From: a virus
DNA length: 44,005 nucleotides
Virus record (IMG/VR): IMGVR_UViG_3300036715_001102
Span: 1-44,005 of that record
Reading direction: 5' to 3' (one strand)
Position 1 is the stretch's first letter. Every line of letters starts with the position of its first letter. The notes beneath the pieces were generated by a model, which saw only the letters and a list, made by a program, of their open reading frames with translations, did no database searches and had not been told where the DNA came from. The position numbers and the translations under genes are program-made. Below, piece after piece: positions 1,013 through 31,276 of this stretch.

Positions 1013-1293
1013 GAAACCAACTCCCTACCATCTACGCTTACAAGAGCTGGCTTGGCCGATGGAAGTTTAAATTTCTGGCAAATGGCTTACCTCGTGCAGA
1101 CAAACTGATCACTCTTTTCTACCAAAAGCCGATGGATTATGACGCCATGGCGATCAGCTGTGATGCGTGGCAGAAAGTCGCCCGCGAATCTATTCAGAAG
1201 ATTAGAGATTTAGAGCTGAAGCAGGCCGCCCTACTCGCTGAACTCGTTTACACTAAACAAGAACTGGAGCGTTTCTATGATGAAGAAACTTAA
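1009..1293 (+). CDS. Hypothetical protein
   Basis: 94 residues. The ATG at 1009 is chosen because AAGGAG (995-1000) sits eight bases upstream and it forms ATGA with the preceding stop; the longer frame from 982 has no such signal. The N-terminal half is basic and aromatic (YKSWLGRWKFKFLANGLPR). The C-terminal half, residues about 55-94, is a predicted amphipathic helix or coiled coil (ESIQKIRDLELKQAALLAEL). I do not recognise the family. Confidence 0.65.
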   Translation: MRNQLPTIYAYKSWLGRWKFKFLANGLPRADKLITLFYQKPMDYDAMAISCDAWQKVARESIQKIRDLELKQAALLAELVYTKQELERFYDEET

Positions 1294-1435
1294 GGTACTC
1301 TGGCTTAGCTACCAGCTTTACTCAGCGCGTAAGAATGCTGAGGTAGAAGAGTTCGCAGCAGTTGCTGCGAGCCACAACGCACGGTATTTTCATCTTCGAG
1401 CAATTGACTTGCAGTCTAAGTTAGATCTAAGATAG
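1277..1435 (+). CDS. Small hypothetical protein
   Basis: 52 residues starting at tandem ATG codons (1277/1280) that overlap the end of the preceding gene by 17 bases. The product is basic and helical (MMKKLKVLWLSYQLYSARKN) with an Ala-rich middle. GAACTGGAG just upstream can serve as a ribosome site. The last codons overlap the promoter-like sequence at 1404-1433. Function unknown. Confidence 0.5.
   Translation: MMKKLKVLWLSYQLYSARKNAEVEEFAAVAASHNARYFHLRAIDLQSKLDLR
1404..1433 (+). promoter_or_regulatory. Sigma70-like promoter with a CTAAGTTAG palindrome in the spacer
   Basis: TTGACT (1404-1409), an 18-base spacer and TAAGAT (1428-1433) match a host sigma70 promoter. The spacer contains CTAAGTTAG (1416-1424), part of the larger palindrome-rich CTAAGTTAGATCTAA, which recurs at three other promoter-like places in the window. 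It would drive the gene at 1565 through a structured leader of about 125 bases. Confidence 0.5.
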
Positions 1436-1451
1436 AATACCGATTCACTGC

Positions 1452-1544
1452 TTGGCCGCAGCTTTAGAGTAAGCCCTGATCTGCATACTGCTGGTACTCC
1501 CAGTCGGCCAACGTCTTCCCAGACGAGTATGCAGTTCAGGGCTT
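1452..1544 (+). ncRNA. Candidate structured leader RNA with a possible pseudoknot
   Basis: An 18-position outer stem (1472-1489 with 1526-1543, one mismatch at 1480/1535) encloses two small hairpins: CTGG/CCAG (1491-1494/1500-1503) and CGTCT/AGACG (1512-1516/1521-1525). TTGGCCG at 1452-1458, 5' of the stem, is exactly complementary to CGGCCAA at 1505-1511 between the two hairpins, so a three-way junction with a pseudoknot can form. TTTT follows the outer stem, and the Shine-Dalgarno of the next gene (AGGAGA, 1552-1557) comes right after. This looks like a cis-acting regulatory RNA or attenuator. No known family was recognised. Confidence 0.45.
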
Positions 1545-1564
1545 TTACATTAGGAGAAAGACAA

Positions 1565-2041
1565 ATGATGACGCAAGACGAACTTGAAAAAGTTAAGCAG
1601 TACTTAATGGGCGAGAAAGGATTTAGAGATCGTTTCCTGGGGCAGAATTCAGACAAAGATCGACGAATGGTTATCCATGATTACATCCAATACGAATTTG
1701 GAAGTGACGTACGCGAACGCAGTTTGGTTAGCGAGCGCGTTACCCTCGCCGAATACTTCCAGAACTACTTTTCAGACGCCACTCTCGGCACAGCAACACC
1801 AACCACCCAGGAGCAAGACATGAACCAATCACTACCAGCAATTGAAACAAAAACCTACATCTTCGGCACACTTGCCGCCAACGTTTCTGACGACCAAGTT
1901 TTCGGCATGGTCGCTGGTCTTGAACAGCAGATTGAACAGCTGAGCAAGACGCAAAATAAATCGAAGAAACTCGAAGCCAAGATTGCAGCGCTACAGGCTG
2001 ATGTCAAAGCACTGAACGACTTCGTCGACGCCCGTCCGTAA
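1565..2041 (+). CDS. Hypothetical protein with C-terminal coiled coil
   Basis: 158 residues from the tandem ATG at 1565/1568; AGGAGA at 1552-1557 fixes this start, and the upstream in-frame ATG at 1529 lies inside an RNA stem. Residues 1-60 are charged and helical (DELEKVKQYLMGEKGFRDRF). Residues about 108-150 form a predicted coiled coil (GLEQQIEQLSKTQNKSKKLE). It is the first gene after the promoter at 1404 and ends just before the structured region at 2042. Function unknown. Confidence 0.7.
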   Translation: MMTQDELEKVKQYLMGEKGFRDRFLGQNSDKDRRMVIHDYIQYEFGSDVRERSLVSERVTLAEYFQNYFSDATLGTATPTTQEQDMNQSLPAIETKTYIFGTLAANVSDDQVFGMVAGLEQQIEQLSKTQNKSKKLEAKIAALQADVKALNDFVDARP

Positions 2042-2304
2042 TACGTATCAAGCAGCTCTTAGGAGCTGCCACATCTATCGACACTTGCAATAAGTCTTAG
2101 CCGCTTATACCTAAAATCTCTTATGCGGGAGTTCGGGTAGAAGGGTGCTATATCCCAGCAAGTGTCGATAGATGTGACAAAGCGAATGCAGGGCTAATTA
2201 GGACATCACGGTTGCTGCAAGCGACACGAATGCATGAAGCAAGTGCATAACCTGTGCAGCGAGTAGCCACACCCAGCAATCTAATTTAACTCTAAGGATC
2301 TAAA
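2042..2304 (+). other. Gene-free structured region with a 19-bp perfect inverted repeat
   Basis: No convincing ORF in 263 bases. It starts with a GCAGCTC/GAGCTGC hairpin (2052-2058/2063-2069, 4-base loop). Then come two perfectly complementary 19-base arms, 2070-2088 (CACATCTATCGACACTTGC) and 2158-2176, separated by 69 bases that can fold further (ATAAG 2090-2094 with CTTAT 2104-2108; TACC/GGTA; GGG/CCC). The right part (2177-2290) has GC-rich partly self-complementary segments around TGCA motifs. No T-run follows the long stem, so it is not a standard terminator, and I could not fit a tRNA cloverleaf. It may encode a stable non-coding RNA or be a protein or RNA-processing site. Confidence 0.5.
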
Positions 2305-2604
2305 ATGAACGAAGACCAAATGCGATCGATAGCTGATCAAGCTGCTACCGATAGCCACGAAGTGCTGAATAATATCAAGGCAGTCAAGGGCGAGAACTAT
2401 GCTAGGTTAATCCACCACACGATTGGGCTGAATCTGATCATCGCATCGACAAACGACCCACTATTAGTCAAGATGCTACAGACTGCTACGATGACGATCA
2501 TGAGTGACTTAGCTAAAGCCTACGGCATCGATCTGCACGATAAAGAAGTTGCCGAGGAATTGCGCAGAAATTTTTTGGCAGCAATGCCAAAAGAACCGGT
2601 ATGA
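2305..2604 (+). CDS. Hypothetical protein
   Basis: 99 residues, predicted all-helical (IADQAATDSHEVLNNIKAVK at the N-terminus). AAGGA seven to eight bases upstream supports the ATG at 2305. The TGA overlaps the ATG of the nuclease gene at 2601, so the two are translationally coupled and the protein may be a partner of the nuclease. No family recognised. Confidence 0.7.
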   Translation: MNEDQMRSIADQAATDSHEVLNNIKAVKGENYARLIHHTIGLNLIIASTNDPLLVKMLQTATMTIMSDLAKAYGIDLHDKEVAEELRRNFLAAMPKEPV

Positions 2605-3323
2605 AGATCATACCGATTCACCAGTGGTCGCCGAGCAAGATCAAGACATTTAACGAATGCAAGTTCCGCTTCCAGCTTCAATATGGTCAGAAGATTCCGG
2701 AACCTGAGCGCCCTCTTCCACCGGGCAAGACCGAGCACGCTAACGATCGTGGTACCCGTATTCATGAATCAGCTGAAGCGTACGCGCGTGGCCTCGGCCC
2801 CTTCATCCCAGAGATGAAGAAGTTTCAGGTCGAGTTCGACTCTTTAAAGACTCTATTCTCTAATGGGATGGCCGAGTTCGAGGGAGAGTGGGCACACGAC
2901 AAAGACTGGAACCCAGTGCCATGGAAATCGAAAGAGGCATGGTTACGTCTGAAGATCGACGCACTGGTACACCTCTCGCCATACGAAGCAGTCGTCATTG
3001 ACTATAAGTCCGGCAAGAAGTTCGGTAATGAGATTAGTCATGCTGAGCAAACTCAAGCGTATCAGCTGGTCACACTGCTGCGCTACCCAAAGATAGAGAT
3101 CGTCCACACCGAACTATGGTATCTCGATCTTGATGAAATCACACAGACCACATTCACTCGCCAACAAGGCATGCGCTTCAAGCCTTCGTTCGATCGGAAA
3201 GGTCACGCTATTACTGACGCAACAGAGTTTCCTACCAATGCCAATGTTTTTTCCTGTCGCTTCTGTCCGTACAGCATGAAGCCGGGCGGAACTGGTCATT
3301 GTGAAAAAGGGGTCTGGAAATAG
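2601..3323 (+). CDS. Cas4/RecB-like PD-(D/E)XK exonuclease
   Basis: 240 residues. It opens with the WSPSKIKTFNECKFRF box typical of RecB/Cas4-family nucleases. The motifs are RGTRIHESAEAY (family His, about residue 55), LRLKIDALV (active-site Asp, about 115), VVIDYKSGK (D-x-K, about 132) and EQTQAYQL (QxxxY-type helix). Four cysteines (NEC near residue 19 and CRFC...HC near the C-terminus) fit an iron-sulfur cluster as in Cas4/AddB-type enzymes. The likely role is degrading or processing DNA ends for phage recombination and replication. Coupled by ATGA to the preceding gene and placed in the replication block. Confidence 0.85.
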   Translation: MKIIPIHQWSPSKIKTFNECKFRFQLQYGQKIPEPERPLPPGKTEHANDRGTRIHESAEAYARGLGPFIPEMKKFQVEFDSLKTLFSNGMAEFEGEWAHDKDWNPVPWKSKEAWLRLKIDALVHLSPYEAVVIDYKSGKKFGNEISHAEQTQAYQLVTLLRYPKIEIVHTELWYLDLDEITQTTFTRQQGMRFKPSFDRKGHAITDATEFPTNANVFSCRFCPYSMKPGGTGHCEKGVWK

Positions 3324-3356: not shown

Positions 3357-4907
3357 ATGAAAGAACCATGCCGACATGGCTGCGGCTGCACTTTGAACGA
3401 GCACGTTAAAAATATACAGAAAGCGATCATTATGTCCAATCGCTGGAATTGTAACCCTAACTATCAGCGTGGCTGGTACCGCAGAGAGTATGACCGCATT
3501 GGCTTGCACCCTGCTGTCATACAAGCGCTTGATGTCGCACACCCGAAAGACCTACACCAGCTGGTTCTTGAGCACCCACATATTAGTACTGAGGGTAAGC
3601 TTGCTTACACGCAGAATGACGAAAAAGGCTTCAAGGATATCCAGACTGTCACCACGGTCGGGCGTTACCTGACTCGGCATTTCCCGAACCTACCCGATCA
3701 TGAAGTACGCGGCTTAGCGCAGCTGAAAATGGGCTGCCGTATTGTCAGCACCATGGAAGAAATGCAGCACGCTCTGATGAATGGGCCGCACTCCTGCATG
3801 AAGTGGAAGACCACGGATAATCCATACCAGAGTTACTGCCCTAGCCTCGGCTGGGCGCTTGCCATCAACGAGGTCTGCGATGACATAGTCGGCCGCGCGC
3901 TAGTACATAAGCCGACGAAGACATTCGTGCGCACTTACGCCAAGGCCAGCAATGGCAGCACAACGAGCTGTAATACGCTCCAGCACTGGCTAGGCCAGCA
4001 GGGCTTTGCGCACGCTAATGATTGGGAAGACGGTACCAAACTCAAGCGTATCAAAGACAGAGCGCCTTACCTCGATGGGGATAAACACAAGGCAGATATG
4101 GAGGGCGATTTCTGGGTCACAAACACCGACGGTGAGTATACATTAAGCGGGCAGAACGGCGATTATGAAAGCGCAGAAGATGACAACATTGGATGCTGTC
4201 ACAGCTGTGGGCGTATACTCTATGATGGTGACGATTATGACTATGTTAACGATGATGAAGTAGTCTGCCAGAACTGCTTAGATGAGAACTATGTGTATGT
4301 TACTGGCGCACATGGCAATGACTATTACGTACATGGAAACGACGCCATCTACATCAACGATATGTGGTATCACAGCGATTATCTAGATGAGCAGAATGAG
4401 CTGCGCAGGCTGTACGATGGCGAGTATGCCCACGAAGATGACTGTTTCTATTGCGTCGTCGCCGAAGAATATTACCTCAACGACGAAGAAAACGAAGTTG
4501 AGTTAGCAAATGGTGAACGCGCCGCAGAATGTAATGCGTGGCAGTGCGCTGTTTCTGGTGATTGGTATGGCAACAATGAAGGCTGCGATGCAGCATACTT
4601 CATGAAGACAGGTGGCGAGACAGTTCATCCCGATAACGTAGAGCCGGACGACCCCGAAGATTTCGAGTTAGTCGCGTCGCCTATAAAGTCAGCCATACCT
4701 AAACCGGAAGTTGAAATACCTATGCCGAGCGAGGCAGAACTGTATGCCTATCACAACCAGATGGCGAAGCTACTTAACGATATACAACCTGAAAGAATAT
4801 ATGAACCATCTGAAGACAACACTAGAGATAGCACTAAGCTTGAAGAGGCCGCATTCGGGGAAACAGGTGCATACCCTAATCAATTACTTACTACAGTTGC
4901 TGCCTGA
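3357..4907 (+). CDS. Large Cys-rich, acidic hypothetical protein with zinc-ribbon-like motifs
   Basis: 516 residues; AGGAGA about eight bases upstream supports the ATG at 3357. The N-terminus has a CRHGCGC cluster. Residues about 60-230 are a conserved-looking domain (TVGRYLTRHFPNLPDHEVRG). Residues about 275-440 are very acidic and aromatic with CxxC pairs (CCHSCG, VCQNCL) that look like zinc ribbons, followed by tyrosine/aspartate-rich repeats. The last 36 codons overlap the start of the peptidase gene in another frame. Similar large proteins occur in phage early regions without known function; a zinc-dependent nucleic acid or protein interaction is an inference. Confidence 0.8.
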   Translation: MKEPCRHGCGCTLNEHVKNIQKAIIMSNRWNCNPNYQRGWYRREYDRIGLHPAVIQALDVAHPKDLHQLVLEHPHISTEGKLAYTQNDEKGFKDIQTVTTVGRYLTRHFPNLPDHEVRGLAQLKMGCRIVSTMEEMQHALMNGPHSCMKWKTTDNPYQSYCPSLGWALAINEVCDDIVGRALVHKPTKTFVRTYAKASNGSTTSCNTLQHWLGQQGFAHANDWEDGTKLKRIKDRAPYLDGDKHKADMEGDFWVTNTDGEYTLSGQNGDYESAEDDNIGCCHSCGRILYDGDDYDYVNDDEVVCQNCLDENYVYVTGAHGNDYYVHGNDAIYINDMWYHSDYLDEQNELRRLYDGEYAHEDDCFYCVVAEEYYLNDEENEVELANGERAAECNAWQCAVSGDWYGNNEGCDAAYFMKTGGETVHPDNVEPDDPEDFELVASPIKSAIPKPEVEIPMPSEAELYAYHNQMAKLLNDIQPERIYEPSEDNTRDSTKLEEAAFGETGAYPNQLLTTVAA

Positions 4908-5904
4908 TTCATATCTTGATAACCACGGTAATGTTCACTGCACAGTAGGCGAATCACGTACGCTATTCAGCTCCCATACCGACACAGTCCATCGTGAAGA
5001 CGGAGTGAACTGGTACACCCGCGCAACTGAGGTTTTAGTTAAGGGAATACTCGATGGCGGGACACGCACCATGTATCGTGCCAATGGTGCTCCGCTCGGT
5101 GCTGATTGCGGTGCCGGCGTAGCACTCATGGTCCACATGATCATGAACAACTTGCCTGGTCACTACGTGTTCCATGCAGCAGAAGAAGTCGGTGGTGTGG
5201 GCAGCAGTAAACTTGCCGACTCAGGTGTCCTTAAAGGTCATTTTGATCGTGCCATTGCGTTCGATCGCAAGGCGACACACTCGGTCATTACACACCAGGC
5301 ATGTGGTCAGTGCTGTTCAGATGAGTTCGCTGATGCGCTGTGCGATCAGTTAAATATTGCTGACAGCACCTTCATATTCGCCCCGGATGACACCGGTGTT
5401 TATACCGACACAGCTGAGTACATCGATCAGATACCTGAGTGTACAAATGTGAGCGTAGGTTACTACAGTGAGCACACCCCGAATGAATCGCTTGACTATA
5501 CTTTCCTTGAGCAGCTTGCTGCTGCCGTACTGTTAGTGAAGTGGGAAGAGTTGCCGGTCGGTGTAATCCCCGAACCATTACCAGCGAGCCTTGCGAAGTG
5601 GTCAACTTCGGGTGATATTCAGTGGAGCGGCGCCGTTATATATAACACCGATCATGCCGCAGCTGATCACCTCGACGAACTCTGGTACCTGGCAGATGTA
5701 TACCCAGAGATCTTTGACGAATTCACCTACGAAGCGATCATAGACATCGCCAACGTTCTCGGTGAAGACGGTGTCAACGCACTTCTCCACATGGTTAACT
5801 CAGGTCACTACACCATAGCAGATTTACAGGATGCACTTTGGGACCCGCAAGGGTTTATGAACTCAGTAGCAATAGATGAGAAACTATTTCAAGAGGGTAT
5901 GTAA
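4801..5904 (+). CDS. M20/M28-like zinc metallopeptidase (aminopeptidase or deacylase fold)
   Basis: 367 residues from ATG 4801 (MNHLKTTLEIALSLKRPHSG). Upstream ATGs in the frame lie deeper within the preceding gene and encode unlikely residues. All five ligands of a co-catalytic di-zinc site can be pointed to: His in SSHTDTVHR (about residue 60), Asp in LGADCGAGVAL, the Glu pair in FHAAEEVGGVG, Asp in IAFDRKA, and His in YYSEHTPNESL. The C-terminal 100 residues are an additional helical part. It probably hydrolyses a peptide or amide bond in the host cytoplasm; the substrate is unknown. The first 107 bases overlap the previous gene in another frame; the TAA overlaps the next ATG. Confidence 0.8.
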   Translation: MNHLKTTLEIALSLKRPHSGKQVHTLINYLLQLLPDSYLDNHGNVHCTVGESRTLFSSHTDTVHREDGVNWYTRATEVLVKGILDGGTRTMYRANGAPLGADCGAGVALMVHMIMNNLPGHYVFHAAEEVGGVGSSKLADSGVLKGHFDRAIAFDRKATHSVITHQACGQCCSDEFADALCDQLNIADSTFIFAPDDTGVYTDTAEYIDQIPECTNVSVGYYSEHTPNESLDYTFLEQLAAAVLLVKWEELPVGVIPEPLPASLAKWSTSGDIQWSGAVIYNTDHAAADHLDELWYLADVYPEIFDEFTYEAIIDIANVLGEDGVNALLHMVNSGHYTIADLQDALWDPQGFMNSVAIDEKLFQEGM

Positions 5905-8855: not shown

Positions 8856-9061
8856 TCTTCGACTCCCAAATCGCAGGTATCCCCTGCCAGATCAATGTCA
8901 CCTATATGACGGAGTACATTCCTAAAACCTGGTATGACCCTGAATGTGGTGGTGACTTTGAATTTGAAGTGCTCGACCGCAAGGGCTACAAAGCCCCGTG
9001 GCTCGAGAAGAAATTAACCCCGGCTGATGAAGCTAGAATTTATGAAGAGGCGATAGCATGA
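8852..9061 (+). CDS. Small conserved hypothetical protein
   Basis: 69 residues from ATG 8852, chosen for the ATGA overlap with the upstream stop; the longer frame from 8813 lies wholly inside the previous gene. The sequence QINVTYMTEYIPKTWYDPEC and GGDFEFEVLDRKG suggests a beta-rich fold like the small phage proteins that describe a 'Y.P.....P.CGG..EFE..D' pattern. The TGA overlaps the polymerase ATG at 9058. Function unknown. Confidence 0.7.
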   Translation: MIFDSQIAGIPCQINVTYMTEYIPKTWYDPECGGDFEFEVLDRKGYKAPWLEKKLTPADEARIYEEAIA

Positions 9062-12057
9062 GTTGGTCCTCCGCCGTACGCAAAGCGGTCATCCAGGCAT
9101 TTAGCCCAATACCGGTAGTGCCGCGCGCAATCGAGTGGAACAAACTAGTTTCACTCGATTTTGAAACTTACTTCGATAAGGATTATACGCTCAGTAAATT
9201 GTCCACGTCTGAGTATATTCGTGACCTACGATTCAAAGCGCAGATGGTCGGGATCAAGATCGGACGCAAGAAAACAAAAGTAGTACCACATAAAAATATT
9301 GCTGCCGAACTCTCTAAAATTGACTGGGCGCAGTATGATCTTCTTTGTCACAATACGGCCTTTGATGGTCTTATACTTAGCCATCACTATGGCGTTATAC
9401 CACGCTTTTATTACGACACTCTCTCTATGGCGCGGGGTCTGTATAGTAATGATATTAATGCTGGTCTTGACGATGTTGCTCAGTATCTAGGCAAGGGTAG
9501 CAAGACACCTGATGTTCTCGAAAAGACACGTGGTGTTCTGAATTTCTCTCCTGCGCTCTATAAGGAATGCGCTGGCTACTGTGGCAATGACGTTGACTTG
9601 ACTTTCGATATTTTCGAAGCGATGGCGCCGCTCACACCTGAATCAGAAATGCGCCTGATCCACATGACCGTGCGCATGTTCTGTGACCCGGTGCTGCGCG
9701 TCGACATACCACGGGTTCAGGCCGAGCTGGTCAAAGAGCTGCAAATTAAGGAAGAGATGTTGATGTCGATCGATGTTAGCGGCTTTCCTGATAAAGAACT
9801 CAAGCTCGCTGAACGCAGTCTGCCAGAACATGAGAAGCGTCTGCTCAAGGCGAAGAAGATTATCGGTAGTAGTGAGAAGTTCGCTGACCTGCTGCGTGCC
9901 GAGGGCATCGAGCCACCGGTCAAGATCTCACCGTCATGGATCGCCAAGAAGCCGATCGATCGCGAAGACAGCAAGAAGTGGAGTTACGCCTTCGCTAAAG
10001 ATGACGCGGCGTTTATTGAGCTGCCCGGCCGTGTCGATGAATGGGCTAGTCACCTTGACCGGAATAAGGTCAAGGACATACCCAAGATCATGGCGCTACA
10101 AGAGCGCGTGCAGGCGCTGGTCGACGTACGTATCTCAGTCAAGAGTACGACGAATGTTACCCGCGCTCAACGGTTCTTGAATGCCTCAGCGAATGGTTGT
10201 GCCCTGCCTGTCGGTTATGCCTACGCACGTGCGCATACTTATCGCTGGGGAGGCAACAACAGCATGAACATGCAGAATCTCAAGCGCGGTGGAGAACTGC
10301 GCTTGTCGATCCTGGCACCGAAAGGCATGCAGTTGGTCGTGGTCGATTCGGGCCAGATTGAGTGCCGCGTTAATGGCTGGCTATGGGATCAGGATGATCT
10401 CATGGACGCATTCCGTAGCGCTGATGGTGGTACAGGTCGTGATGCTTACTGTAATTTCGCTGATCTGATCTATGGTTTCGAAGTAACCAAAGATAACAAG
10501 ATGGAACGCTTCGTCGGCAAGGTCGCAGTCCTTGGCTTAGGCTTTCAGATGGGCGCAGAGAAGTTTCAAGGCACACTAGCCAAGGGCGCTCTCGGCGGAC
10601 CGCCAGTATTCTTCGAGCTGGATAAGTGCAAGAGCATCGTCAATGCCTACCGCCGCAAGAACCACAAGATTGCCGGTGGCTGGGTTAAGTGTACCCAGAT
10701 CATCGAAGAGATGGCGAGTGGTGTTACTGGTTCATGGAAATGTCTGCACTGGGAAGAAGGCCGCATCTGGGGACCAGACGGTACCAGCCTGAAATACCCT
10801 GACCTCAAGAAATCGAGAAACGAGGACAAGGGATGGGACGAGTGGACGTATGACGCTAAAGGTCAGCGCAAGAAGATCTATGGCGGTCTACTCTGCCTTG
10901 GATCTAAAACAGATCTATTGACACTCGAAGGGTGGAAGCCTATTATTGACATAGTTCAATCAGACCTCTTATGGGATGGCGAATCGTGGGTCACTCACGA
11001 TGGACTTGTTTATAAAGGAGAGAAAGAAACTATCGATTTCGGCGGTGTACGCATTACACCTAAGCACGAAGTTCTCGTCAATGAAGTATGGACCCCAGCA
11101 AAGGATACAACCTATGATCAAGCTACATCATCGTGCGCGAGATATTACAGGACTCCGGTTCGGGAAAATGCTGGCAGTTTCGGCTATGGGGAGCGACGGG
11201 AGACGAACGATCTGGCATATCCAATGCGACTGTGGGGTAACGTCGTTCATTTCAGCCAGCGAATTTTTGAAAGGTCGTACGCGTTCATGTGGGTGTGCAA
11301 CTTCGCAAATGATCTCAGAGTCACGTACAACTCATGGGTTAAGCAGACATCCGGTATATGCAGTATGGCGAGGGGTAGTAGCAAGATGCACCAACCCGAA
11401 TCACGCTGCGTGGGAGAACTACGGTGGACGTGGGGTAACAGTATGTCCAGAGTGGCTTCAGTCATTCGAAGCGTTCTGGGCGGATGTCGGGCCTACCTAC
11501 GAGGAAGGCTTGACCTTGGACAGAATAGACAACGAAGGTTCGTACACACCGAACAACTTTCGGTGGGTTTCTTACCAAGTGCAGTGTTCCAACCGCAGAA
11601 GCAATGTCTATCTGGATACCCCGGACGGAAAGATGACAATGGCAAAGGCGAGTCGATTCTACGGTATAGGGAAAACAACTCTGTCGTACCGCATCAAGAT
11701 AGGCGTTCCAATAGCACAGATGTTCAACAGGCCGAAGCGGTCTACGACATATTAAACGCCGGACCTAATCGTAGGTTCACTATAAGGGGTAACGACGGCC
11801 AGCCGTTCATCGTGCACAACTGCGAGAATATCGTACAGTGGTTAGCACGTATGGTCGTGGCTGAGCAGATTCTAGAGATCGATAAGAAGCGCCGTGTCGT
11901 TATGATCACACATGATGAGAGTGTCGCTGTCGCCCCTACTCGCTCTGCCGAAGTCTGCTTTAGAGAGATGATAAAAGCGTTCAGAACGGCGCCAGCGTGG
12001 TGTAAAGATATCCCGCTTAATGCTGAGGGCGGTTTTGCTGAGAATTATTCGAAATAA
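9058..12057 (+). CDS. Family-A DNA polymerase with 3'-5' exonuclease, interrupted by an intein
   Basis: 999 codons; the mature protein after splicing would be about 690 residues, normal for phage PolA-type enzymes without a 5' nuclease. Exonuclease motifs: SLDFETYF (D34/E36), HNTAFDGLIL (about 95-104) and YCGNDVDLT (about 180). Polymerase motif A VVVDSGQIECRV (Asp about 430), motif B KVAVLGLGFQMGAEKF (about 488), motif C ITHDESVAV (His-Asp about 952). The intein occupies residues 613-921, exactly within the conserved YGGLL/CENIVQ segment between motifs B and C, so an unspliced product should be inactive. This is the replicative polymerase. Start set by ATGA with the previous gene. Confidence 0.92.
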   Translation: MSWSSAVRKAVIQAFSPIPVVPRAIEWNKLVSLDFETYFDKDYTLSKLSTSEYIRDLRFKAQMVGIKIGRKKTKVVPHKNIAAELSKIDWAQYDLLCHNTAFDGLILSHHYGVIPRFYYDTLSMARGLYSNDINAGLDDVAQYLGKGSKTPDVLEKTRGVLNFSPALYKECAGYCGNDVDLTFDIFEAMAPLTPESEMRLIHMTVRMFCDPVLRVDIPRVQAELVKELQIKEEMLMSIDVSGFPDKELKLAERSLPEHEKRLLKAKKIIGSSEKFADLLRAEGIEPPVKISPSWIAKKPIDREDSKKWSYAFAKDDAAFIELPGRVDEWASHLDRNKVKDIPKIMALQERVQALVDVRISVKSTTNVTRAQRFLNASANGCALPVGYAYARAHTYRWGGNNSMNMQNLKRGGELRLSILAPKGMQLVVVDSGQIECRVNGWLWDQDDLMDAFRSADGGTGRDAYCNFADLIYGFEVTKDNKMERFVGKVAVLGLGFQMGAEKFQGTLAKGALGGPPVFFELDKCKSIVNAYRRKNHKIAGGWVKCTQIIEEMASGVTGSWKCLHWEEGRIWGPDGTSLKYPDLKKSRNEDKGWDEWTYDAKGQRKKIYGGLLCLGSKTDLLTLEGWKPIIDIVQSDLLWDGESWVTHDGLVYKGEKETIDFGGVRITPKHEVLVNEVWTPAKDTTYDQATSSCARYYRTPVRENAGSFGYGERRETNDLAYPMRLWGNVVHFSQRIFERSYAFMWVCNFANDLRVTYNSWVKQTSGICSMARGSSKMHQPESRCVGELRWTWGNSMSRVASVIRSVLGGCRAYLRGRLDLGQNRQRRFVHTEQLSVGFLPSAVFQPQKQCLSGYPGRKDDNGKGESILRYRENNSVVPHQDRRSNSTDVQQAEAVYDILNAGPNRRFTIRGNDGQPFIVHNCENIVQWLARMVVAEQILEIDKKRRVVMITHDESVAVAPTRSAEVCFREMIKAFRTAPAWCKDIPLNAEGGFAENYSK
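10894..11820 (+). other. Intein in the DNA polymerase (splicing domain in the polymerase frame)
   Basis: 309 codons, polymerase residues 613-921. Block A begins at Cys613 (CLGSKTDLLTLEGWKPI). Block B is GVRITPKHEVLV with the conserved T-x-x-H. The C-terminal blocks F/G read VYDILNAGP...FTIRG...PFIVHN, followed by Cys922, giving the canonical His-Asn/Cys junction. Removing it joins GGLL to CENIVQWLARM, a continuous polymerase motif. About 70 N-terminal and 28 C-terminal residues look like intein. The roughly 210 residues between them have no recognisable domain in this frame, because the DNA there encodes an HNH protein in another frame. Confidence 0.88.
11114..11755 (+). CDS. HNH homing endonuclease nested out of frame inside the intein
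   Basis: 213 residues from ATG 11114, preceded by AAGGA (11101-11105) with an eight-base spacer. The family opening (RDITGLRFGKMLAVS) begins within the first residues. Order: DITGLRFG segment, zinc-ribbon CDCG...SCGC (about 38-62), the HPVYAVWRGVVARC and WENYGGRGVTVCPEW segments, the nuclease core LDRIDNEGSYTPNNFRW (about 145-160), QCSNRR, and a C-terminal helix-turn-helix-like DNA-binding region (MAKASRFYGIGKTTLSYRI). Its frame is +1 relative to the polymerase, and its TAA (11753-11755) lies in the intein block F codons. The frame extends upstream to 10976, but that part is a shadow of the intein. Expected to cut intein-less polymerase alleles. Confidence 0.85.
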   Translation: MIKLHHRARDITGLRFGKMLAVSAMGSDGRRTIWHIQCDCGVTSFISASEFLKGRTRSCGCATSQMISESRTTHGLSRHPVYAVWRGVVARCTNPNHAAWENYGGRGVTVCPEWLQSFEAFWADVGPTYEEGLTLDRIDNEGSYTPNNFRWVSYQVQCSNRRSNVYLDTPDGKMTMAKASRFYGIGKTTLSYRIKIGVPIAQMFNRPKRSTTY

Positions 12058-20043: not shown

Positions 20044-20047
20044 ACCC

Positions 20048-20090
20048 TTAACGCGTCTTAACGCGTCTTAACGCGTCTTAACGCGTCTTA
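20048..20090. repeat. Four tandem 10-bp repeats (ACGCGTCTTA)
   Basis: Four identical consecutive copies of ACGCGTCTTA (20051-20090), with a leading TTA, each containing the ACGCGT palindrome. The 10-bp period puts all copies on about the same face of the helix. Confidence 0.9.
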
Positions 20091-20307
20091 TGATGACTTT
20101 TAAGTCAGAGCGTATAGCCCCGAAATATATTCACATGGTAGAACCCTACCATCCTGAAACACAGGCACTTGCTTAATAGCAACACATTCTGATACGCAAA
20201 AAGAGTTCCATTTAGGATTTTATTTACATATTCTATTTTATTTTACTTTACTACTTTTAAGAAAGAATAGAAGAATAGAAGGAATAGAGATAAGAGCATA
20301 TAAAACA

Positions 20308-20350
20308 AGGACTTAGGGCATTCCGAAATTCTTCCGAAACGCCCTATCCT
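20308..20350 (-). terminator. Hairpin terminator candidate for the late transcript
   Basis: TAGGGC (20314-20319) pairs with GCCCTA (20341-20346), extended by AGGA/TCCT (20308-20311/20347-20350). Read on the minus strand it follows the stop of the giant gene and is followed by TTGTTTTATA. The interior contains a TTCCGAAA direct repeat. Moderate support. Confidence 0.5.
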
Positions 20351-20359
20351 TCTGAAGTT

Positions 20360-23300
20360 TTATCTCGCTCTGGAGGCCTTTGCAGCATCCAGTTTCAGTA
20401 GGCTATCAAGTGGGGAAGTCGGTATCACGCTGTTGATAAATTGAGTGGCACCGCCCACCTTATTGATGCTACCTATTGTATGCTCCACGAAGCTCGCCGT
20501 AGGTCCGAGGGCGTTCAGGTAGTTGTGTGACGCTATGCCCTTGGCCTCATCAATTGCAAACTGCCCCGTCCCAGTGATGCCAGACTTCGTTATACCGCTC
20601 CATAAATAATCACCAAACCCCCACCCTTTCTGCCATTCCGGTACGTCACCGCCGCCGCCCTGTACCATGGACTTAGCCGCAGCTGCCGCTATAGCCAGCG
20701 GTACGTATGACAGCAGCGCATATGCTGGTCCGTAATTCCCATAGTCAGACTCATGCAGCACCTTCTTTAAAATAGTGTCATGGAACGCAAACGTGTAGGT
20801 CTTCATGTGCGCCACCAGCACCCACAATGGGTCGTTCATCCACAGTGCTTTTTTCGCTTGGTCTGGCCGCACGATAGCACCGTCAATCCAAGTGTTCAAC
20901 GCCATCTTCATTTTGGCTTCGTACGCCACGTCTCCGCCGACTTCATCACGGAACACCAGCAGCTTACCGTTGGCATCCAGTTTCACATCGTCTTTGGTTA
21001 ACCCTAATTCTGCCAGCCAACGTTCACTGTGTTTACCTGCACCCTCACCGACTTGCCTCGCAATAAACCTAGCCGCAGCCACTGATGCACCAGCGCGCAT
21101 ATTTTTCGTTTGCTGCTCCATCAGGTTGACTCTGAACAACGCATCGTTTACTGTCCGGGTTGCGCCCGTCACCGTGTTGTAGTTGTTCGCCGACATTGAA
21201 GCACTCACCAACGAAGCACGTTCGATCGCGCCGATGTCTTCAGCGAACTCGATAGCTGCGTTAGGGTTCGGGTTGCTCATCAGTCCACGGAGCATCTGAG
21301 ACACCCCTAGTTTATAAGCGTTTAGCGCGTCACTCCACTCGCCACCGTTGACCTTAATACCGCCAGCATCGAGCAGACTACTGAACCAGCCAAGTCCCAG
21401 CATCCGCACGTTGGAGAACACCATCGCCGTCGCCATGTATTTACGGGCATTGGGGGAGATGTCACTACCTAGAGAACCATCAACGCCCGCTATGTATTTA
21501 CGCAGCGTCGCCTCTTCCTCTTCTGTCGCGCCCTCTTTCTTACCACGCGCGATCAAGGCTTCCATCTTGGCACCGTCGTCGCCAAAACGATTTTTCCACT
21601 CGATACGGCGGGTAGACTGCCGTGCGTAACTAGTTATCGTGTGGAGGTAATCTTGATGCAGGAACGGCGCACGGTCAGCGTCATCAATATCGAGGAAGCG
21701 TGTTTTCAACTGCTGCATCCCCGGTGAGGCTTTTGATTTCGGGATTTTCGCGTCGATACCAATCTCAGCGCCGTCATCACTCATCAGCCTGGCCATGATT
21801 TCTTCCGGCGTACCGGCATCCACCAAGCGCCCCATACCCTTCGCCTTTTGCAGCATCGCGATGAACTCATCCTGGTGCCCTGCAATGTATCGTGGGTCCC
21901 ACAGCACAGGCACATAGTCCTCAATAAAACCGAGCGAGATCTTGGCAGCCTTTAACGCGTCCATACGCTCGTCGAAGAACTTACGCAGCACCGCTTTTAT
22001 CTCGGTGTACTCGCCTACGTCCGTCTTTGACTGCATCTGGTTAAACGCTGCTTTAATATCGTCCTCGTCAAACTTCTCCAGACCGGCCATGACATCATTC
22101 ATCAAGTTGCGCACCCCTACGCCGACGGCGTTTAGATAGCCACGGTCTTCGCCGGTGTCTGTCGTATGCCGGGAAATGAGGTCCACAATCTCGGTATATG
22201 AAGGGATGCCGAAGTCGCGTATGCGAGCGCTGCCAATACCTAACATCGCCTGCGTAACCTTAACGGCCATCTCCGTGCCCTTCCTCATGTGCTCGATTGT
22301 TCCATTGCGGCCTTTAGCAACAAGTGCACGATGGACAGCGCCACGGTCTTCAATGTTCGCAGCGTACTCACCAGAATTGAAATACTCCATGATCTTCTCG
22401 GCACGCTCACTAGCTGTCCAGATACCGAAGTAGCGCTGTAACACTTCCTTGATCTGGTTCAGTATGCCAGTAGGCTTAGCGGACAACTTCAGTACGCGGC
22501 TACCGTCTGCGTTGAGAGCGTTCCAAAACTGGAACGCGTACGCCGCCGCCTCTTCATGGTCTTCAGAAATCTGCTTAAGCGCCGCTGGCTCATCCTTCAG
22601 TAGCGTGCGCAATTGAGACATGATCTCAGGGGACCGAGCGAAGCTCAGAAACTCCTTAATAACTTTATGGTCGCCGTTCTTGCGCAGCGCAGCGAACCAC
22701 GCGTGAAGCGCCTCATGGTAGCGCACACCCGTAGGGTCTTTACTGTAGACGGACACGAGGATGGTGGCCTTCTGCATTTCTTTGCCGGTGACAGGATCGT
22801 TTAACGCTTCCTTAAAAGCTCCGGCAAAATCAGTATATTCACCGTGCTCCACTTTCGGTATGGAGTGGCCGAACACCTTAGCAAAATAGGCCAGGTTGTC
22901 GTCAATTTCTTTCTGTGTGATCCGCCCGTTGTCAGGAGTCGCCGCGAGTTCAGCTTCGGTCTTCTCTATTAGCTCCTCAAGCAGCTGGACGAATTTTTTC
23001 TTACCATCAATGGCCTCTTTCTGTCCGTTGTTTTTGTTCAGCTCGTCTAGTTCTGCATTCACCCTACCCAGCGCCGCTTTCTGTTTATCAACAGCCTGCT
23101 TGATAGCGTGGTACTTTTTCGCGTCGTTGTTTTTGGATTTGGAGAACGAGACATGGTTGGTATTGATCTTACTGTCGTCATAGATGACGAAGTTTGGGTG
23201 GGTATCGTCCTTGCCGCCTTCCGCAGCAAACCTATGCCCTAAGATACCGAGGCGCTGTAAAAACTCCGAAGCACCACGGTCGCCATTCTTCCCTTTTGGG

Positions 23301-26300
23301 AGGTGGTGGCTCAGGTATTTGTATATATCTTTGCCGGTGGGGTCGTCCAGCTTCTTTTTATATTTTAAATCCTTAAACATCGAACTTTTCTCAAGCGCTC
23401 TCTGCACGAGTTCACTCTGCTCGCTAAATGGTGTGTCCCAGTCCAGCAGCTCTTTGTTCTTTATGTCCACCGATAGATGGTACGTCGGGGATTTCTCAGG
23501 AATGAACTTATCAGCGACCTTGCCGGCTAAAGCGTCATTAAACTCGACCATAAACCGCCGGACATCGCCGGTGAATGTGTCGATATCTTCGGCAGAAAAT
23601 GGGCTCATTTTTGACTTCTCGACATACGCCTGCTCGTACGAATCGCCAAGCATTTTGCGTTCCGAGGGGATGGCTTTATTAAATGCAGTGATGAATGATT
23701 CGATCATCTTGTTTGTATTGCTGTCACCGATGTGGCTTCTAGCGTCGTCAAGGATATTAACTAAGTTATCGAGCATCTGCATATGTGGGTCGACCTTGTT
23801 GGCGTCTTCAATAAAATTACCAATGAAGCCAGTTTTTTTACTCTTGCCAGAAAACCCAGTCTTGTACCACCTATGAACACTATCGGACGTGGATAAGTAA
23901 GTCCCTGCGCCGTACACCATAGCACCCTCACCTCTCATAGCGTGTTTCCGCCAATCAAACTTACCGTCATGACGGATAGGCGAATCGTGGGTAGCGGCAA
24001 ACCCCCTCTGTTCCAAATCTTCATGGATGTTCGTCGACATCATCGAGAACTTCATACCGGACTTGTTCGGCGCGAAAGAACTGACGTAGTCCTCGAACGT
24101 CGTATCAGCGGCAAACACGGCACGAGCCACTTGATCGGCAGTATGTTTCATGTTTCCTCGTTTCGGTGCCAATGATTCCAGATCCCCTAAGTGACCAGTC
24201 ATCTGACTAAACAGTTTCGCTGCCTTGCCCATGTCTCCGTTACGAATTGCGTCCATCATTTTCGCTTCGGTTCTTTCACGCTCCATCATTATCTGGTTCG
24301 CGCGGTCCACCAGGTTCGCTAAGTAGATGCGGTTCTGTTCGGTCTTGGCTCTCTCCAGTACAGCACGCACGCGGTCGTTGATCTGGTGCGCACTCGCTAC
24401 TTCGTGGGCGAACTCAGTACGGCTAGTGTTCTCCTTCGTAACGGCTGCGGGGTCGTGGCGTTTTGATTTAGTGCGCTCGGCAAGGGCGGACTCCATCATC
24501 TTTTTATTGGTCGCGGCAGCGTGACTGGATTTCGAGATGGCCGGCTTAATTTTTGGTATAACTGACATTACAGCCGACGATACACGCTCTTCCTTCACGT
24601 ACTTCGTTTCCTTGGCGCGCTTAACGAATGAATTGACTACCTGCTCACCCTTGGCGCGCTTCGCTGCCTTTGTGGCGTAGCTGATTGCATTGCCCGAGCC
24701 GTCCATGTTTAGCTGCGGTACATCCTCGCCGTACTTTGCTTCGAGCAAATGGATCAACCCTTCTTTAGCCAAGTCGGTGACACCCATCATCTCCTGTACC
24801 AGCGTTGGGATGCCTTCACCTTCGTCTAGGCGAACCTCTAACGCGTCGAGCTGCTTCACCAGATCGTTTGTCTTTATATCCGCCTCGTCCAGCAACAGAA
24901 GCGCGTCCGACAGTTCCTTAAAATCCTTCAGCATCTGCGCGCGCGTGTCTGGTTCTTGATCCAGGCCATCCGTCAAGTCACTAAGGGCTTTCTCAAGCTT
25001 CGTTATATCTGCTTCGTGGTCAGCGATGATCTTTGCGCGCATAGCTTTGTGTGCCACCGTTTGTGCCGGGCTAAACCCTGTCGTATCGGTATCCGCATGA
25101 CGCCCTTTAGCAGCCGCATTTGATTTGATGTTACGCTCCATCTGGTTGTAGATGGCCTCGTTACCTTCCTCCATACCTTCATCTTTACGGATCTTCGCGA
25201 TCGCTCTTGTCGTCTTCAGTAGAGACCGAATTAGCGGCATCTTCTCACTGTAATCAAGGTCGTCTTTCAGCTCCCTGATAAGCGCGTCACGTTGTTCACG
25301 TAGCGGTGCCAATGTACGCTGCACTTCTGGGTTCTTCCCACCGTCAGTGAGGTAGTTTTTCAGTTCACCCCACGTTACGGCAGTTTTGCCCTCTTCCTTA
25401 TTCGCCTTCACCACAACCGTACTGTCCGGCACGTGCATGTACTCTTTACCGGCGACAGCTTTGTCACCGCTCATCAGTACGCCGACTTTCAGCTTCGCAG
25501 CAATGCCAGCAACACCGTCAGCGAATAATCGCGCTGTGCGGTACATGCTGCCGTTGACATCATCACCCTCGGTATATTCCTTAGCTTTACCGCCGCGCGA
25601 AGTACGCCCCATCCATGACACAATACGCGACGCGTCGAAGTGGTTGTCGCCCTTCTCCAGCCCGTCGACTTTGATCGCTGTGCCATCCTTCGGAACAACC
25701 GCTACAGCTTCACGCGTAAGGGTGCTCTTGCCGTTGGCAATGGTGTTCTTGTACCAGCCGGTCTTCATCATGTGCAGGTCGCCCTCACCGATGATCTCGC
25801 TATCGTTAGTCGCCTCCGACGCCACGATGCCATGTGTATCCGCCAGTTTCAGAACCGCGTCATTCACTTCTTTGACCGAGCCGCCTTTGGCGACAATCTC
25901 CTTACCCTTCTTCGTCGCTTTCAGCTCATCGAGCATGTCCGCCAAGGGCACGCCACGATGTTTAGCGATCTCGTGTGTGCTCATCCAGTTGACGGCGCGG
26001 TTATTGTCGTACGCCTCGGCAGATGCCATCTCACGTTTCACCCGGTCGTAGCCAGAGTGCTCGTCCTGCTCCAGCAGGCCTTCGCCATTCTTACCGTCGC
26101 CGAAGAACACCGGCTCATCAGCGATGGTCGTCATATTGCCGTCAGCATCATGTATGGCACGCAGGTCAAGCCCACCACCCTCTTCACCTTCGTTCGAGCC
26201 AGCTATAGAGTTACCGGACTCTTCTTTTTGCGTAGAGCTTTGGGCCGATTCAGACACCTTAGCTTCTTCCTTGAGCGTAGCTTCAGCCTCTGCCCGCTCA

Positions 26301-31140: not shown

Positions 31141-31276
31141 TTGTAGTTCCTCTAAGATAGAGCGATTTTAGACTGTTTTTAGGTTTAGGAGTAGTAGACG
31201 AAGAAAAGCAGCCCGTAGGCTGCTGGATTTGTTTAGTGATAAAACCGTCGAATATGTATCGAGCAAGAACATACAT
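31133..31276 (-). CDS. Possible small gene between two virion genes
   Basis: A 47-residue frame (MYVLARYIFDGFITKQ onward) with AGAGGCG six to ten bases upstream, starting right after the stop of the 327-residue gene and overlapping the start of the 954-residue gene by eight bases. However, an intrinsic terminator (31208-31223) lies inside it, so it may be chance. Low confidence. Confidence 0.25.
   Translation of the reverse strand: MYVLARYIFDGFITKQIQQPTGCFSSSTTPKPKNSLKSLYLRGTTNE
31208..31223 (-). terminator. Intrinsic terminator between virion genes
   Basis: On the minus strand GCAGCC-TACG-GGCTGC is followed by TTTTCTTC. A 6-bp GC stem with a tetraloop and T-rich tail is a good Rho-independent terminator. 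It would reduce transcription into the two internal-virion genes unless anti-terminated or re-initiated. Confidence 0.7.

What the first reader, a model, noticed from the sequence alone, without database searches (positions are those of the whole stretch)
2042..2304. 263-base gene-free region with 19-bp perfect inverted repeat
In a genome where genes overlap by a few bases, this gap is exceptional. The perfect 19-bp stem (2070-2088/2158-2176) closes a 69-base foldable loop and is preceded by another hairpin. No terminator T-run, tRNA or ORF explains it. It could be a stable non-coding RNA, a decoy for host RNA-based defence, or a DNA cruciform site.
Basis: partly seen in the sequence, partly recalled or inferred. 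Interest (0 to 1): 0.7.

Follow-up and report, generated by a model that had tools for sequence, protein, structure and literature searches.

The report
Shape-conserved phage long-stem RNA
Between two early genes of an uncultivated phage lies a stretch that codes for no protein but folds into a 20-base-pair stem with a small cap; distant relatives of the phage carry the same kind of fold with completely different letters, which points to a working RNA of a sort not yet catalogued, whose job is unknown.

Summary
In detail: a 263-nt gap (2042-2304) holds a hairpin (2052-2069) abutting a perfect 19-bp stem (2070-2088/2158-2176). The next longest perfect inverted repeat in the window is 12 bp. RNA folding of 2050-2180 has z -8.7. 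Two details fail: the 69-nt cap folds no better than shuffles, and 2181-2304 is unstructured. It matches nothing in Rfam, ARAGORN or phage DNA. New here: it is not alone. A second element (E1, 1471-1544) follows a promoter/operator-like motif shared with two relatives, which carry one or two such elements after the same small gene. Across 80 related loci, long stems with 40-110-nt caps are about 13-fold in excess of resampled controls. About a dozen lie between early genes, with unrelated stem sequences (27% identity). Three to six share a covarying pseudoknot in the cap; the window's elements do not show it. I conclude this is a structured early-transcript RNA of a shape-conserved, sequence-free class in KPP25-related phages. 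A protein-bound RNA is my favourite; an operon-processing hairpin is the main rival; a DNA cruciform or origin is disfavoured. Decoy function is untested. Transcription itself is inferred, not shown.

The parts
1277..1435 (+). 52-aa gene; homologue precedes the RNA region in relatives L032 and L033
   Evidence: tblastn E 8e-4 against L032/L020; the L020 protein matches L033 at E 0.003; 33% identity in alignment
1408..1444 (+). conserved promoter/operator-like motif cTTGCAGTCTAnnTAnGATCTAAnnTAGAnTACCGAT (possible -35 TTGCAG, 18-nt spacer, -10 TAGAAT, with a palindrome between them)
   Evidence: 1 mismatch to the L020 sequence in 31 specified positions; a looser version stands at the start of the L033 region; in L020 and L033 it is outside genes
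1448..1461 (+). E1 5' hairpin CTGC-TTGGCC-GCAG; its 6-nt loop is complementary to 1506-1511
   Evidence: sequence; loop-to-junction 6-mer complement p = 0.007 by shuffling
1471..1544 (+). E1: 18 of 19 bp stem (1471-1489/1526-1544) closing a three-way junction with two hairpins
   Evidence: fold z -4.8; stem score 16.5
1565..2041 (+). 158-aa ORF between E1 and E2; its C-terminal half has relatives in L006, L018, L050 and L062
2052..2069 (+). E2 5' hairpin (7 bp, loop TTAG) abutting the long stem
   Evidence: sequence; shuffle p 0.01; fold
2070..2088 (+). E2 long stem, 5' arm (19 bp perfect)
2089..2157 (+). E2 cap domain, 69 nt; no significant fold of its own and no pseudoknot of the relatives' type
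   Evidence: z -1.06; pseudoknot score matched by 51 of 100 shuffles
2158..2176 (+). E2 long stem, 3' arm
2177..2304 (+). unstructured remainder of the gap, ending in the leader of the next gene (AAGGA at 2294-2298)
   Evidence: z -0.04; sequence
2305..2604 (+). 99-aa downstream ORF without known relatives
   Evidence: no hit in phages, IMG/VR or Pfam

Best explanation
E2 (2052-2176) is a structured RNA made as part of the phage's early transcript, together with a second, similar element E1 (1448-1544). Both would be read from the promoter/operator-like site at 1408-1444. They belong to a class of about 100-nt 'long-stem' RNAs that recurs, often once or twice per genome, in KPP25-related phages: a stem of about 20 bp, often with one internal mismatch and often with a small 5' hairpin, capped by a folded domain of usually 45-73 nt. 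Shape is kept while sequence drifts freely, so I infer that what matters is recognition of the fold by a protein. The RNA is cut or trimmed out of the early mRNA and survives as a small stable RNA that binds a phage or host protein. Shown here: the structure, its rarity, its intergenic position, its recurrence with unrelated arm sequences, and in part of the class a covarying pseudoknot. Inferred: transcription, processing, a trans-acting role and the protein partner.
For: Stem beyond chance, fold z -8.7. Positional counterparts: L032/L020 and L033 have small gene, conserved promoter-like motif, gap with two long stems, AAA ATPase gene. Class-wide excess: 13 stems of score 17 or more in 80 loci against 0, 2, 1, 1 in resampled controls; 11 against 0, 1, 1, 0 at 18 or more; 5 against 0 at 20 or more. 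Elements lie between same-strand genes, several with a downstream start behind a Shine-Dalgarno-like sequence. The 5' arms of 12 elements share 27% identity yet pair at 209 of 216 positions, against 39% when arms are swapped between elements (the scan selected for arm pairing). Pseudoknot in the cap (6-nt strand pairing with the 6-nt loop of a downstream hairpin): scan leaders L033, L075, L076 and L084 have outer stems of 16.5-20 against 12.5 for the best chance candidate. A single-sequence model of L084 finds L095 (E 3e-11), L033 (1e-5) and L076 (0.001).
Against: E2 itself lacks the pseudoknot. With the L084 model, E1 and E2 are the top two places in the window, but mainly on stem pairing and at weak E-values (0.016 and 0.023), and E2 scores better on the minus strand. 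A model of E2 finds only itself. Stem mismatches show no clear G-U bias for either strand. No transcript data, no terminator, no dedicated promoter directly before E2, and no protein partner known. Only about 10 of 80 loci show elements, though the loci cover parts of genomes.
Confidence: 0.5

Rival explanations
1. Cis-acting operon element: the long duplex is an RNase III-type cleavage or mRNA-stability hairpin that separates the upstream from the downstream early messages, as in the T7 early region; no independent RNA function.
For: E2 sits between two same-strand early genes, with unrelated sequence and a conserved stem of about 20 bp, as expected if only a duplex is needed. E1 and E2 flank one gene. 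No own terminator.
Against: Other gene junctions of the same early region lack such elements. In relatives two elements sit side by side in one gap (L033, L054). A conserved pseudoknot in the cap is not needed for cleavage.
Confidence: 0.3
2. DNA-level structure: a cruciform or hairpin used for replication, recombination or packaging.
For: The arms pair equally well in DNA (z -8.1) and on both strands; phages do use hairpins in origins.
Against: A more origin-like site lies elsewhere: four 10-bp tandem repeats and a 25%-GC tract at about 20.05-20.3 kb, comparable to the repeat-rich gap of KPP25. Cap pseudoknots in relatives have one orientation relative to genes. Some phages carry two elements.
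Confidence: 0.1
3. Remnant of a mobile element (MITE-like, terminal inverted repeats around a short core).
For: Inverted arms of 22 nt; position of similar elements shifts between phages.
Against: The arm occurs in no viral contig and the element only once in the genome; every copy in relatives has different arms; I saw no obvious target duplication on reading the flanks.
Confidence: 0.04
4. Chance palindrome with no function.
For: The cap does not fold better than shuffles and no direct orthologue exists.
Against: 19 perfect bp in 44 kb and a 13-fold excess of such stems in relatives.
Confidence: 0.06

Closest known systems
phi29-type packaging RNA (pRNA), Rfam RF00044
   Same: About 120-nt phage RNA: a long stem made by the two ends, capped by a junction domain with loop pairing; fold kept while sequence varies widely (PMC12670572, abstract)
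   Different: No Rfam match; host phages are not phi29-like; one or two copies inside early operons at shifting positions; loop pairing here is drawn within one molecule
RNase III processing hairpins of T7-like early transcripts (from general knowledge)
   Same: Long duplex between early genes of one polycistronic message
   Different: Here a cap of usually 45-73 nt, in some relatives with a conserved pseudoknot, and two elements in one gap; cleavage untested
RNA anti-CRISPRs (Racr), PMC10651486 (abstract)
   Same: Small phage-encoded RNA of possible counter-defence use
   Different: Racrs are defined by likeness to CRISPR repeats; no repeat likeness was tested or is apparent here
GOLLD/ROOL ornate RNAs, PMC12286853 (abstract)
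   Same: Structured RNAs, in part from phages, without a clear function
   Different: They are several times larger (general knowledge) and are in Rfam; no match here

Membership tests
Long-stem RNA class of KPP25-related phages (defined here) | Stem of about 18-22 bp closing a 45-73-nt cap, between early genes | tested here: met
   E2: 19 bp, 69 nt, between genes. E1 has a 36-nt cap, below this range
Long-stem RNA class of KPP25-related phages (defined here) | 5' hairpin next to the stem (frequent, not universal) | tested here: met
   E2 shuffle p 0.01; also L033-2, L084, L090, L111; absent in L054-2, L058, L076 and L095 by this test
Pseudoknotted subset (L033-1, L075, L076, L084; L095 and L111 weaker) | 6-nt strand pairing with the 6-nt loop of a downstream hairpin inside the cap | tested here: not met
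   E2 score matched by 51 of 100 shuffles on + and 17 of 100 on -
Pseudoknotted subset | Covariance-model match to L084 | tested here: inconclusive
   E1 and E2 rank first and second in the window, E 0.016 and 0.023, mainly by stem pairing and for E2 on the minus strand
Any Rfam family, including phi29 pRNA, group I introns, tmRNA, riboswitches | Covariance-model match at the curated score | tested here: not met
   No match at gathering score in the window or four relatives; only BsrF at E 4.1 in the permissive search
tRNA or tmRNA | ARAGORN call | tested here: not met
   None in the window or nine related loci
Intrinsic terminator | GC-rich hairpin with loop 3-8 followed by a T run | tested here: not met
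   No site at 2042-2304
RNase III processing site | Cleavage within the duplex in vivo or in vitro | not testable with these tools
   Only the anatomy fits
RNA anti-CRISPR (Racr) | Likeness to a CRISPR repeat | not tested
   No repeat library at hand

The most novel reading that the evidence does not exclude
A new class of phage RNA, carried in one or two copies by KPP25-related phages, in which the three-dimensional fold is selected and the sequence is nearly free. It would be a trans-acting RNA that binds a phage or host protein, for example as a structural part of the phage machinery or as a counter-defence decoy, with E1 and E2 of the window as divergent members.
Probability: 0.35. Interest if true: 0.78.

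Novelty: new variant of a known kind. Interest (0 to 1): 0.55.

Why it matters
Phage 'dark matter' is usually discussed as unknown proteins. Here related phages keep a short non-coding element by shape rather than by sequence, which sequence searches and Rfam miss. If it is a trans-acting RNA, its partner could reveal a new phage-host contact. The cultured relatives found (KPP25-like Pseudomonas phages) and the class members listed give a concrete set for RNA-seq and deletion tests.

Tried and rejected
Nucleotide searches for the region in phage records and for the arm in viral contigs: nothing. Relatives by the two flanking ORFs: none in IMG/VR, only a weak ACP17 hit in named phages, so comparison had to go through the RecB-like gene 0.3 kb downstream. 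Rfam, also permissive: nothing useful. The E2 covariance model finds only itself. A joint MAFFT alignment of six relatives' elements failed because the arms share no sequence, so covariation was counted by hand alignment; the arms were chosen for pairing, so that count is descriptive. G-U versus A-C asymmetry as a test of RNA against DNA: inconclusive. Complementarity of the E2 hairpin loop to its cap: not significant (p 0.12; E1 p 0.007). The KPP25 676-nt gap looks like an origin with repeats, not this element. With default filters the L084 model finds no further member in 70 other sources, and with filters off it also gives one probably false hit in L075 at E 0.0018 while scoring the real L075 element poorly. 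The single genome-contig scan yielded mainly L110 and L111. Literature searches found no description of this class in the open library.

Full report
OBSERVATION. The region 2042-2304 lies between an ORF ending at 2041 and one starting at 2305 behind AAGGA. It holds GCAGCTC-TTAG-GAGCTGC (2052-2069), immediately followed by a perfect 19-bp inverted repeat (2070-2088/2158-2176) around 69 nt. No other perfect inverted repeat in the window exceeds 12 bp, and three resampled windows had maxima of 0, 14 and 0. RNA folding of 2050-2180 gives z -8.7; the cap alone -1.06; the remaining 124 nt -0.04. So the hairpin and stem are far beyond chance, while the cap and the 3' half are not. There is no terminator, tRNA, tmRNA or Rfam match.

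THE GENOME. The window is a 44-kb IMG/VR virus record. It carries a RecB-like exonuclease (2601-3323), a DNA helicase, an interrupted family-A DNA polymerase and an ATP-dependent ligase on the plus strand, and virion-type genes on the minus strand. Its closest named relatives are KPP25-like Pseudomonas phages, at 37-39% identity in RecB and polymerase. Nothing matches at DNA level in the phage collection.

A SECOND ELEMENT AND A SHARED UPSTREAM SITE. Upstream, 1436-1564 also folds strongly (z -3.6; 1448-1550 alone -4.8): E1, an 18-of-19-bp stem over a three-way junction. It begins after a 37-nt motif (1408-1444) that recurs almost unchanged in the phage of L001/L020/L032 and in looser form in L033, each time just after a homologue of the 52-aa gene 1277-1435. 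In those two phages the motif opens a gap of 385-530 nt with two long-stem structures, followed by an AAA ATPase gene. The palindrome inside the motif also stands before RecB in several relatives, so it is probably a general phage promoter/operator, not something special to the RNA. A promoter role is inferred from its TTGCAG-18-TAGAAT layout.

A CLASS OF ELEMENTS. A RecB profile fetched about 80 related loci. Scanning them for long imperfect stems with 40-110-nt caps gave 13 with score 17 or more, against 0, 2, 1, 1 in locally resampled controls; 11 against 0, 1, 1, 0 at 18 or more; and 5 against none at 20 or more. The elements I group as the class are window E2, L032A, L033 (two), L054 (two), L058, L075, L076, L084, L090, L095 and L111, plus window E1. 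Most lie between same-strand genes, several with a plausible ribosome-binding start downstream; weak or spurious ORFs overlap L054, L076, L084, L090, L095 and L111. L058 has only a 24-nt cap and L054-1 a 104-nt one. The scan also picked up GC-rich or repeat-like stems in coding DNA of other loci, so not every stem is a member. The 5' arms of the twelve elements compared share only 27% identity, yet 209 of 216 positions pair, against 39% when arms are swapped between elements; the scan selected for pairing, so the arm figure is descriptive.

A PSEUDOKNOT IN PART OF THE CLASS. Inside the cap of L033-1, L075, L076 and L084 a 6-nt strand is complementary to the 6-nt loop of a hairpin 9-11 nt downstream: CUGACA/UGUCAG, CUGCCA/UGGCAG and CGCGAA/UUCGCG, with hairpin stems that also change in step. 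In a scan of all loci these four had outer stems scoring 16.5-20; the best other candidate, apart from the antisense copy of L076, had 12.5. Within-cap shuffles reached the observed pseudoknot in 0, 0, 0 and 3 of 100 cases; for L111 and L095 in 12 and 15, and for window E2 in 51. L095 nevertheless shares CUGACA...UGUCAG with L084 and L033-1. An Infernal model of L084 alone, all filters off, finds L095 at E 3e-11, L033-1 at 1e-5 and L076 at 0.001, but the L075 element only at 1.1. On the window it ranks E1 and E2 first and second, mainly by stem pairing, and E2 on the minus strand. E2 is therefore a member of the long-stem class by anatomy, not of the pseudoknotted subset.

MECHANISM. I favour a structured RNA released from the early transcript and recognised by shape. 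Free drift of the arms with kept pairing, recurrence at different gene junctions, and a kept cap fold in part of the class fit recognition of a fold by a protein. The main rival is a cis-acting processing or stability hairpin in the early operon, which needs only a duplex and fits E2, whose cap has no significant fold, quite well. A DNA role is less likely: a repeat-rich, 25%-GC tract near 20.0-20.3 kb is the better origin candidate. Yet the stem itself is strand-neutral, so RNA is inferred from the subset's oriented pseudoknots and the intergenic setting.

KNOWN THINGS. The nearest analogue in style is the phi29 pRNA (a long end-to-end stem, a folded cap, sequence variable; PMC12670572), but there is no Rfam match and the host phages differ. 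No description of this class was found in the searchable literature, which covers open-licence papers only.

VERDICT. Observation confirmed; 'non-coding RNA' supported at moderate confidence; decoy function untested. A real, probably new RNA class in one phage clade, with unknown function.

Noticed in passing
window 9058-12057: The DNA polymerase ORF is interrupted by about 309 aa (residues about 613-921) compared with KPP25 polymerase; the insert starts with Cys and ends with His-Asn before Cys, and phrog_93 (endonuclease) matches weakly inside it: very likely an intein.
   Followed up: partly
window 1436-1564: Second structured gap (E1). Its 5' hairpin loop UUGGCC (1452-1457) is complementary to GGCCAA (1506-1511) inside the junction, p 0.007.
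   Followed up: yes
window 20045-20360: Four tandem ACGCGTCTTA repeats, a hairpin and a 25%-GC tract between convergent gene blocks: possible replication origin and terminator region.
   Followed up: partly
L032 9968, L034 9945, L035 2081, L050 9970, L095 9970: Palindrome TCTAnnnTnGATCnAnnnTAGA just upstream of the RecB gene in several relatives and at window 1415 (one mismatch at 31151): a likely clade-wide operator or promoter.
   Followed up: partly
L031 6219-6896 (KPP25 26219-26894): KPP25 gap of 676 nt with TGTTACGAAATTTTTT repeats and an AT-rich tract; looks like a replication origin.
   Followed up: no
G010 4354-4471 and G011 2536-2653: Two relatives share another long-stem element containing CTTCCATTCCAA with a 68-nt cap, which differs at paired positions.
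   Followed up: no
window 1565-2041: Only the C-terminal half of this ORF has relatives in other phages, and an internal ATG with ribosome-binding site (AGGAG, ATG at 1820) precedes it; possibly two genes or a fusion.
   Followed up: no
window 3357-5904: A 516-aa and an M20-peptidase-like gene lie between RecB and helicase, where most relatives have one small gene; only L111 carries homologues of both.
   Followed up: no
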